Virus record (IMG/VR): IMGVR_UViG_3300047476_000384
Location: 1 to 22,951 of that record
Origin: a virus
Length of the DNA: 22,951 bases
Direction: 5' to 3' (one strand)
The notes beneath the pieces are model-generated. The model had not been told where the DNA came from. It worked only from the letters and a program-made list of their open reading frames with translations, and did not search any database. Below are positions 21,427-22,176 of the stretch, in pieces; the stretch's first letter is position 1, and the number at the start of each line of letters is the position of its first letter. The position numbers were made by a program, and so were the translations under genes.

Positions 21427-22047
21427 TCATTGCATCTTAACCCCCATCGAGGCGCGTGTTACTACGGCGTTTTGTGGTTTGTTTTCTTTATCGCGTTTGC
21501 TCCATGTTACTAACCTTCGCCCAGTATCCCACGCATCTTGAGCCGTTAGTCTTAGTTTACCATTTGCTAAAGGTTCTGCCCAATAGTTAAAAAACTCGTT
21601 CAGCATATTTTTAGGGTAGCGTTCAGCGTATTGTGTCATTGATTTAATCAAATCGTCTTTGCCCCACTTTTTAAAATTAGCATTAGCATTTACATTATCA
21701 CTTACACTATCATTTACACTTACACTTACATTAACAGGTTTTTTGGGTTTCGATTTAACCGACTGGGTTTTTTGGGTTTCTTCTAAACCATCTTGGTTTT
21801 CTTTTGGTCGCCCACCTTTTAAACCATTAACCCTCGCACGTTCAGCGCGTTCGTTCCATTTTTCTAAATCTCTATCCATAGCGGAGCGAATAAACCCGAA
21901 AGCAATAAAAAGAGGGTTTGAGGGTTCGGGCGTATTACCATCGATTTGATATTCAAAAAGCATTCGCATTAATTCACCGAGTTGCTCATTAGAAAGGTGC
22001 TTTAATGTTACCCAGTTATCCGTATAAAGTACAAACGATTTTTTCAT
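21427..22047 (-). CDS. Replication-initiator/helicase-loader-like protein
   Basis: The 206-aa protein has an N-terminal domain MKKSFVLYTDNWVTLKHLSN to about residue 75, with 'LFEYQIDG...P....P.....AF..I...MDRDLEKW', a layout I associate with DUF6291-like phage replication proteins. A GLKGGRPKENQDG hinge and lysine-rich stretch follow, then a 20-residue V/S/N/D/A linker, then a C-terminal part: FFNYWAEPLANGKLRLTAQD followed by AWDTGRRLVTWSKRD. The last segment is common in phage DnaD/DnaT-like loaders. The position before dnaB supports a role at the replication origin (inference). It follows a structured RNA leader, so expression may be controlled by it. Confidence 0.65.
   Translation of the reverse strand: MKKSFVLYTDNWVTLKHLSNEQLGELMRMLFEYQIDGNTPEPSNPLFIAFGFIRSAMDRDLEKWNERAERARVNGLKGGRPKENQDGLEETQKTQSVKSKPKKPVNVSVSVNDSVSDNVNANANFKKWGKDDLIKSMTQYAERYPKNMLNEFFNYWAEPLANGKLRLTAQDAWDTGRRLVTWSKRDKENKPQNAVVTRASMGVKMQ
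21676..21735 (-). repeat. Ten degenerate hexanucleotide units
   Basis: Ten consecutive 6-bp units of the form G(T/A/C)(T/A)A(A/G)T encode the V/S/N/D/A linker at residues 105-124 of the replication-initiator-like protein. Identical neighbours occur (GTAAGT twice, GCTAAT twice), typical of slippage growth. Since units are 6 bp, length changes stay in frame and would only change the distance between the two domains. Confidence 0.85.
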
Positions 22048-22176
22048 AAAAAAACGCCCACTAAAAGCTGCGGTGAGAACCGGGTAAATTACTTTACCCT
22101 CGCAGCCTCTGTGGGCTATAAGTCGTTATGAATTAGCTCGGGGTTCTCACGTCCGAACGTTTCAAATTTACAAAAA
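22048..22176 (-). ncRNA. Unidentified structured RNA with pseudoknot
   Basis: This 129-base gap has no gene. In plus coordinates the stems are GCCCAC 22056-22061 with GTGGGC 22111-22116, GCTGCG 22067-22072 with CGCAGC 22101-22106, and GGGTAAA 22082-22088 with TTTACCC 22093-22099, closed in RNA sense by a GUAA (GNRA) tetraloop. Additionally GTGAGAACC 22073-22081 pairs perfectly over 9 bp with GGTTCTCAC 22142-22150, which crosses two stems and makes a pseudoknot or an alternative fold. In RNA sense the outer stem ends in GTGGGC-G followed by seven U and then the start codon AUG, resembling an attenuator. A -7 box TAAATTTG lies at 22170-22163. I cannot match it to a known riboswitch class. Confidence 0.6.

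What the first reader, a model, noticed from the sequence alone, without database searches (positions are those of the whole stretch)
22048..22176. Compact pseudoknotted RNA leader before a replication gene
Seen: three nested stems, one closed by a GNRA-type GUAA loop, plus a perfect 9-bp pairing that crosses two of them, then a stem followed by seven U directly before the start codon. This many perfect complementary segments in 129 nt is far beyond chance. Inference: a riboswitch, attenuator or stand-alone phage RNA controlling the replication initiator. I cannot match it to a known class.
Basis: partly seen in the sequence, partly recalled or inferred. Interest (0 to 1): 0.75.

Follow-up and report, generated by a model that had tools for sequence, protein, structure and literature searches.

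The report
New pseudoknotted phage leader RNA family
In phages that infect Bacteroidota, a ~110-letter RNA with its own promoter folds into a locked knot ending in a stop-transcription signal just before the DNA-replication genes; it matches no catalogued RNA family, and the knot's two matching halves change quickly but always together.

Summary
It comprises a 5' hairpin P1 whose loop makes a perfect 9-bp pseudoknot (PK) with a strand between P4 (GUAA tetraloop) and P3; nested stems P2/P3/P4; and U7 abutting the ATG of a DUF6291 gene. No Rfam 15 match. Sixty-one distinct homologues keep the core 8-bp PK with 488/488 Watson-Crick cells, 13 alleles and no G-U; covariation exceeds all 500 shuffles. 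A Bacteroidota sigma-A -7 box (TAnnTTTG) sits 2-5 nt before P1 in nearly all, so the RNA should start at P1 and end in a terminator-like stem + U tract. Flanking genes swap while the RNA stays before dnaB (92 of 93 testable loci). The same architecture with unrelated sequence is a candidate in cultured phages (11b, Lillamyvirus/Muminvirus, Baltivirus, Elemovirus, P12002L, FCL-2, B40-8). The PK is the fastest-evolving helix, yet always complementary. Best reading: a new family of promoter-proximal, PK-locked leader/attenuator RNAs of the replication operon, probably also released as a short RNA. Structure and promoter motif are well supported; termination and regulation are inferred. No evidence for a metabolite riboswitch.

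The parts
22163..22170 (-). promoter -7 box TAAATTTG (Bacteroidota sigma-A consensus TAnnTTTG)
   Evidence: TAnnTTTG ends 2-5 nt before P1 in 54 of 74 distinct upstream regions and the weaker T[AT]nnTTT[AG] in 16 more at the same spot (strict-motif background 0.00075 per position); consensus and -12..-5 position from PMC9723704
22153..22158 (-). P1 5' arm GUUCGG; inferred transcription start at or within about 3 nt of its first base
22142..22150 (-). pseudoknot 5' strand GUGAGAACC, in the P1 loop
   Evidence: core 8 bp are Watson-Crick in 488/488 cells of 61 distinct RNAs, 13 alleles
22136..22141 (-). P1 3' arm CCGAGC
22117..22135 (-). A-rich linker between P1 and P2 (15-20 nt in homologues)
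22111..22116 (-). P2 5' arm GCCCAC
   Evidence: covaries in homologues
22101..22106 (-). P3 5' arm GCUGCG
   Evidence: GCUGCG/CGCAGC versus UUUACG/CGUAAA
22082..22099 (-). P4 hairpin GGGUAAA-GUAA-UUUACCC (GNRA loop)
   Evidence: stem and loop vary in homologues
22073..22081 (-). pseudoknot 3' strand GGUUCUCAC
22067..22072 (-). P3 3' arm CGCAGC
22056..22061 (-). P2 3' arm GUGGGC
22048..22054 (-). U7 tract directly before the ATG; terminator-like 3' end
   Evidence: U-rich tract after P2 in nearly all homologues
21427..22047 (-). DUF6291 gene, likely replication initiator; first gene after the RNA
   Evidence: Pfam PF19808 E=1.5e-24; a relative is annotated 'replication protein' in Elemovirus; its slot is taken by a PHROG 'replication initiation O-like' protein in L076
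19476..20876 (-). DnaB-like helicase gene further down the same run of genes
   Evidence: Pfam PF03796 E=6e-79; RNA lies 0.7-1.7 kb upstream of dnaB in 90 loci by model/descriptor

Best explanation
It is a family of structured leader RNAs of Bacteroidota phages, not in Rfam. A host sigma-A promoter starts transcription at P1. The nascent RNA folds P1, then P4, then docks the P1 loop into the strand 3' of P4 (PK), and finally zips P3 and P2. P2 closes as RNA polymerase reaches the U tract, which makes it an intrinsic-terminator-like end. In the subfamily of the window the next start codon follows the U tract by 0-4 nt, leaving no room for another promoter, so the next gene can be transcribed only by reading through this structure. 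The PK-locked fold therefore most likely works in cis as an attenuator of the replication operon (premature end, plus a stem close to the ribosome site), and the terminated product is a stable ~110-nt RNA. Shown by sequence and comparison: fold, PK, strand, promoter motif, U tract, synteny. Inferred: actual transcription, termination, read-through control, and what relieves it.
For: Structure: 97.2% paired cells vs 85.7% shuffled, covariation 0.398 vs 0.158, 0/500 shuffles; PK 100% paired with double changes at 6 of 8 pairs; 61 distinct RNAs, PK 488/488 WC. RNA strand: P1 and P2 hold 73 G-U cells but 2 A-C cells when read on this strand. Promoter motif fixed 2-5 nt before P1. U tract then ATG at 0-5 nt (type A) or up to about 26 nt from P2 (other clades). 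92 of 93 testable dnaB loci carry it (90 by model or descriptor, L382/L385 by inspection); one copy per genome in 20 of 21 matching records, the 21st being a contig with two dnaB modules. Divergent same-architecture versions at the same slot and in cultured phages.
Against: No expression data. The simple terminator scan finds nothing because the hairpin loop is long and structured. No alternative antiterminator helix was sought systematically or noticed. In some relatives the U tract is short (L373, L378, L379: four U). One relative, L374, lacks the element. Phage genes are tightly packed, so the short U-to-ATG distance by itself does not prove cis control. The fast turnover of the PK is not explained by simple attenuation.
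Confidence: 0.48

Rival explanations
1. A stand-alone small RNA acting in trans (on a protein or other RNAs) that merely shares the intergenic space; termination at the U tract is constitutive and downstream genes are fed by general read-through.
For: Own promoter motif and own terminator-like end, the hallmarks of canonical Bacteroidota sRNAs (PMC7366714); flanking genes on both sides are exchanged while the RNA stays; compact 5' and 3' ends.
Against: Always on the coding strand just before a start codon; no single-stranded seed is conserved across subfamilies; PK 7-mers are not enriched elsewhere in the flanking phage DNA.
Confidence: 0.27
2. The PK is a specificity code: loop-strand exchange between RNAs of co-infecting relatives with the same allele shuts down replication or expression, like plasmid incompatibility loops or the P4 CI RNA (both recalled from own knowledge).
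For: The PK is the fastest-evolving segment (5.0% between near-identical RNAs versus 0-1.9% in P1, P2, P3, P4 and linker) although it never mispairs; cultured Elemovirus isolates carry two versions 77.7% identical, both self-complementary; the same allele recurs on different backbones.
Confidence: 0.13
3. A cis-acting antitermination element like HK022 put, acting on RNA polymerase from the nascent transcript.
For: Promoter-proximal structured RNA of a phage operon, as for putL (PMC9378689); most downstream genes are co-directional.
Against: put RNAs are ~70 nt and consist of two stem-loops with specific polymerase contacts; here the sequence is not conserved between subfamilies, a PK is present and a terminator-like end follows at once.
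Confidence: 0.06
4. A replication primer or origin RNA.
For: Usually lies just before the initiator/dnaB module; iteron-like repeats lie in the DUF6291 gene.
Against: Candidate elements also occur before the rha gene in B40-8 and in the late region of G006, away from a replication initiator.
Confidence: 0.06

Closest known systems
Intrinsic-terminator attenuators / terminated leader RNAs (for example Gifsy-1 IsrK, which exists in two isoforms, PMC4825925, abstract)
   Same: Promoter, structured leader, terminator-like end, downstream gene reached only by read-through (read-through here inferred).
   Different: The terminator-like stem encloses a PK-docked domain; no alternative antiterminator identified; termination not measured.
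HK022 put RNA (PMC9378689)
   Same: Structured nascent RNA just downstream of an early phage promoter (putL).
   Different: Different topology and length; PK and U tract here; no conserved sequence for polymerase contacts across subfamilies.
Pistol ribozyme (Rfam; topology recalled from own knowledge)
   Same: 5' hairpin whose loop forms a pseudoknot with an internal strand of a second hairpin.
   Different: The PK strand lies 3' of the inner hairpin here, not 5'; no Rfam match to any member tested.
Type III toxin-antitoxin RNAs / AbiF RNA (PMC12373285 for AbiF)
   Same: Structured RNA that accompanies a gene in a phage.
   Different: Single copy, no repeats, no toxin-like downstream gene family.

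Membership tests
any Rfam 15 family | covariance-model match | tested here: not met
   no match at the RNA for the window or for 12 + 11 further loci; the only others were tRNAs, one snoRNA hit elsewhere in L040, and sub-threshold chance matches
intrinsic terminator / attenuator | GC-containing stem directly followed by a U tract | tested here: met
   P2 followed by U7 in the window; U-rich tract in nearly all homologues; note that the standard short-loop scan does not call it
intrinsic terminator / attenuator | alternative antiterminator structure or demonstrated regulated termination | not testable with these tools
   no expression data; no alternative helix noticed, none sought systematically
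HK022 put | ~70-nt RNA of two stem-loops | tested here: not met
   ~110 nt, PK plus three nested stems; put features
pistol ribozyme | PK strand 5' of the inner hairpin; Rfam match | tested here: not met
   order P1-PKa-P1'-P2-P3-P4-PKb-P3'-P2'; no Rfam hit
pistol ribozyme / self-cleaving RNA | self-cleavage | not testable with these tools
   needs in vitro transcription
type III antitoxin RNA | tandem pseudoknot repeats followed by a toxin gene | tested here: not met
   single unit; downstream genes DUF6291, O-like initiator, HNH, methylase
metabolite riboswitch | conserved ligand-binding core across the class | tested here: inconclusive
   conserved unpaired bases within type A only; subfamilies B and C and isolates share architecture, not sequence
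canonical Bacteroidota sRNA | transcription start plus terminator of its own | tested here: inconclusive
   promoter motif and U tract present; transcript not observed

The most novel reading that the evidence does not exclude
A class of pseudoknot RNAs across Bacteroidota phages in which the PK is a rapidly diversifying, strictly self-complementary identity tag: RNAs with matching tags from co-infecting phages exchange strands and shut down each other's replication operon, giving allele-specific superinfection control.
Probability: 0.13. Interest if true: 0.88.

Novelty: new variant of a known kind. Interest (0 to 1): 0.7.

Why it matters
It adds an uncatalogued structured RNA family that accompanies the replication module of a group of Bacteroidota phages, with candidates in culturable phages (Elemovirus, Lillamyvirus, Baltivirus, 11b, B40-8) where it can be tested at once. 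It shows an RNA whose architecture persists while sequence is almost wholly replaced, which sequence-based searches such as Rfam miss, and a helix that evolves fastest of all helices yet never mispairs. If it controls replication it would be a new control point in phages of gut and aquatic Bacteroidota.

Tried and rejected
Rfam: nothing at the RNA. BLASTN of the RNA against isolated phages: nothing for the window, one spurious 23-nt hit for L040. Covariance model on six isolate phages: none, because their sequence has diverged; only the architecture descriptor and inspection found them. PK strands targeting elsewhere in the phage: 7-mers not enriched. Sigma-70 promoter/terminator scan: nothing, as expected for Bacteroidota and a long structured loop. 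DNA-level hairpin (origin) as the primary function: disfavoured by G-U pairs on one strand only. Opposite-strand model hits on the same loci are weak antisense shadows. No second element was found in G003 at the place where G006 has one. Isolate P12024L and the region held of CRP6 gave no candidate. Literature: no description found.

Full report
1. Check. The 5'->3' order is: -7 box TAAATTTG; P1 GUUCGG/CCGAGC with loop AC-GUGAGAACC; a 19-nt linker; P2 GCCCAC; P3 GCUGCG; A; P4 GGGUAAA-GUAA-UUUACCC; GGUUCUCAC (PK partner of the P1 loop, 9 bp); P3'; P2'; G-U7; AUG. The nested part alone folds 5.0 s.d. better than shuffles on this strand; the plus strand scores less (z -3.1).

2. Homologues. Relatives of the DUF6291 and DnaB proteins in IMG/VR brought 97 loci. 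Covariance model R1 found the RNA in nearly all that reach far enough upstream, with E-values down to 1e-27, with only weak antisense shadows besides. Pattern scans and relatives of two divergent helicases added more. Sixty-one distinct RNAs were parsed into segments.

3. Covariation. On 27 diverse sequences 97.2% of cells pair versus 85.7% in shuffles, the covariation score is 0.398 versus 0.158, and no shuffle of 500 reached either; sliding the partners by 1-3 columns drops pairing to 30-49%. Over the 61 RNAs the 8-bp core of the PK is Watson-Crick in 488 of 488 cells with 13 alleles and no wobble; P1 and P2 contain 73 G-U cells but 2 A-C cells, which says the functional molecule is RNA of this strand. 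R-scape was not available; the shuffles do not correct for relatedness, although four pair types at one PK position and the replacement of P3 (GCUGCG by UUUACG) are hard to explain otherwise.

4. Boundaries. Of 74 distinct upstream regions, 54 have the strict Bacteroidota sigma-A -7 box TAnnTTTG ending 2-5 nt before P1, and 16 more a weaker form at the same spot, against a background of 0.00075 per position for the strict motif. In Flavobacterium this box lies at -12 to -5 (PMC9723704), so transcription should begin at or within about 3 nt of P1. The 3' end is P2 followed by a U-rich tract, then a start codon at 0-5 nt in the window's clade and somewhat further in others. The upstream stop codon typically lies just before or within the promoter region. 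The intergenic region is thus promoter + RNA + U tract.

5. Context. Genes on both sides are exchanged. Upstream: nuclease-like protein, ~85-aa lipoprotein-like proteins, N6/N4 methylase, a 264-aa protein. Downstream: DUF6291, small ORFs, an O-like initiator, NUMOD4/HNH, HNH, methylase. The RNA stays 0.7-1.7 kb before dnaB: 90 loci by model or descriptor, two more (L382, L385) by inspection, one without (L374); loci truncated before the expected place are not counted. Most genes in the near-complete contigs examined run in the same direction. There is one copy per record in 20 of 21 matching records; the 21st is a 52-kb contig that holds two dnaB modules and two RNAs.

6. Beyond sequence similarity. 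A descriptor using only architecture found divergent subfamily B (L381, L383, L384), while subfamily C (L382, L385) was recognised by eye at the same slot. The same architecture then appeared in cultured phages: Flavobacterium 11b (P1 GUUAUUA/UAAUAAC; PK CGGGCAGG/CCUGCCCG; P2 GCUCAUCA/UGAUGGGC), Muminvirus/Lillamyvirus/Hattifnattvirus (PK GUGAGACG/CGUCUCAC), Baltivirus phi13:2 and phi19:3 (PK CUCUCACAA/UUGUGAGAG), Elemovirus, Polaribacter P12002L (before the primosomal protein gene), FCL-2, and Bacteroides B40-8 (before rha). In Elemovirus, isolates of one species group carry two versions 77.7% identical whose PKs are GUGAGAUG/CAUCUCAC and UGAGAGC/GCUCUCA, a compensatory exchange in cultured phages. 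A Markov null gave 11 scores of 53 or more in 11.9 M nt, so in the 0.6 M nt of isolate DNA scanned about half a chance hit is expected. B40-8 (73), Muminvirus (62), 11b (57) and Elemovirus (54, 55) stand at or above that level; Baltivirus (53), FCL-2 (52) and P12002L (50) are weaker by score and rest on a clear promoter motif and an intergenic position. P12002L also has other hits of 50-58 that look like chance or ordinary terminators. Single-sequence isolates are candidates by architecture, not proven homologues.

7. Evolution of the PK. Between RNAs differing by at most 3% elsewhere, the PK differs at 5.0% of its positions, against 1.0% in P1, 0.4% in P2, 0 in P3, 1.8% in the linker and 1.9% in P4; only the U-rich tail (4.0%) comes close. 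L051 and L067 differ at one base outside the PK and at two base pairs inside it. Recombination or diversifying selection are both possible; this pattern is the strangest feature and is not explained by simple attenuation.

8. Mechanism. Because the next AUG in type A follows the U tract almost at once, the next gene can be expressed only through this RNA. Closing P2 last, as polymerase reaches the U tract, makes a folding-dependent terminator the most economical reading; the terminated RNA would be a stable sRNA. Which signal opens it is unknown. Trans-acting sRNA, PK identity tag, put-like antiterminator and primer are rivals, listed with tests.

9. Known or new. No Rfam family matches any subfamily tested at the RNA and no paper describing it was found in the open-access library; most subscription papers were not searchable. 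Filed as a new family within the known kind 'phage leader/attenuator or small RNA'.

Noticed in passing
L425:2073-2180 (record G006, late region): A second promoter + kissing hairpin + U-tract element (PK GUGAGGG/CCCUCAC, P2 of about 11 bp) in the same genome as a type A RNA, between structural genes.
   Followed up: partly
window 21681-21736: Iteron-like tandem repeats (TTACAC / 18-bp unit) inside the DUF6291 gene, reminiscent of an origin inside an initiator gene such as lambda O.
   Followed up: no
L063/L064 (contig IMGVR_UViG_3300044695_002763, 52 kb): Two dnaB modules and two different RNAs in one contig, possibly two phages joined or a tandem.
   Followed up: no
L006 and L007 versus window: RNA identical to the window's from P1 through P2 while the upstream gene is unrelated and the downstream protein is about 57% identical overall: recent modular exchange around the RNA.
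   Followed up: partly
L350 and L437 (Elemovirus isolates): Upstream of the RNA the tRNA gene is also exchanged (tRNA-Met versus tRNA-Ala) between related isolates.
   Followed up: no
L374: The only testable dnaB relative of this group without the RNA; the 5' gene runs almost directly into the DUF6291-like gene.
   Followed up: no
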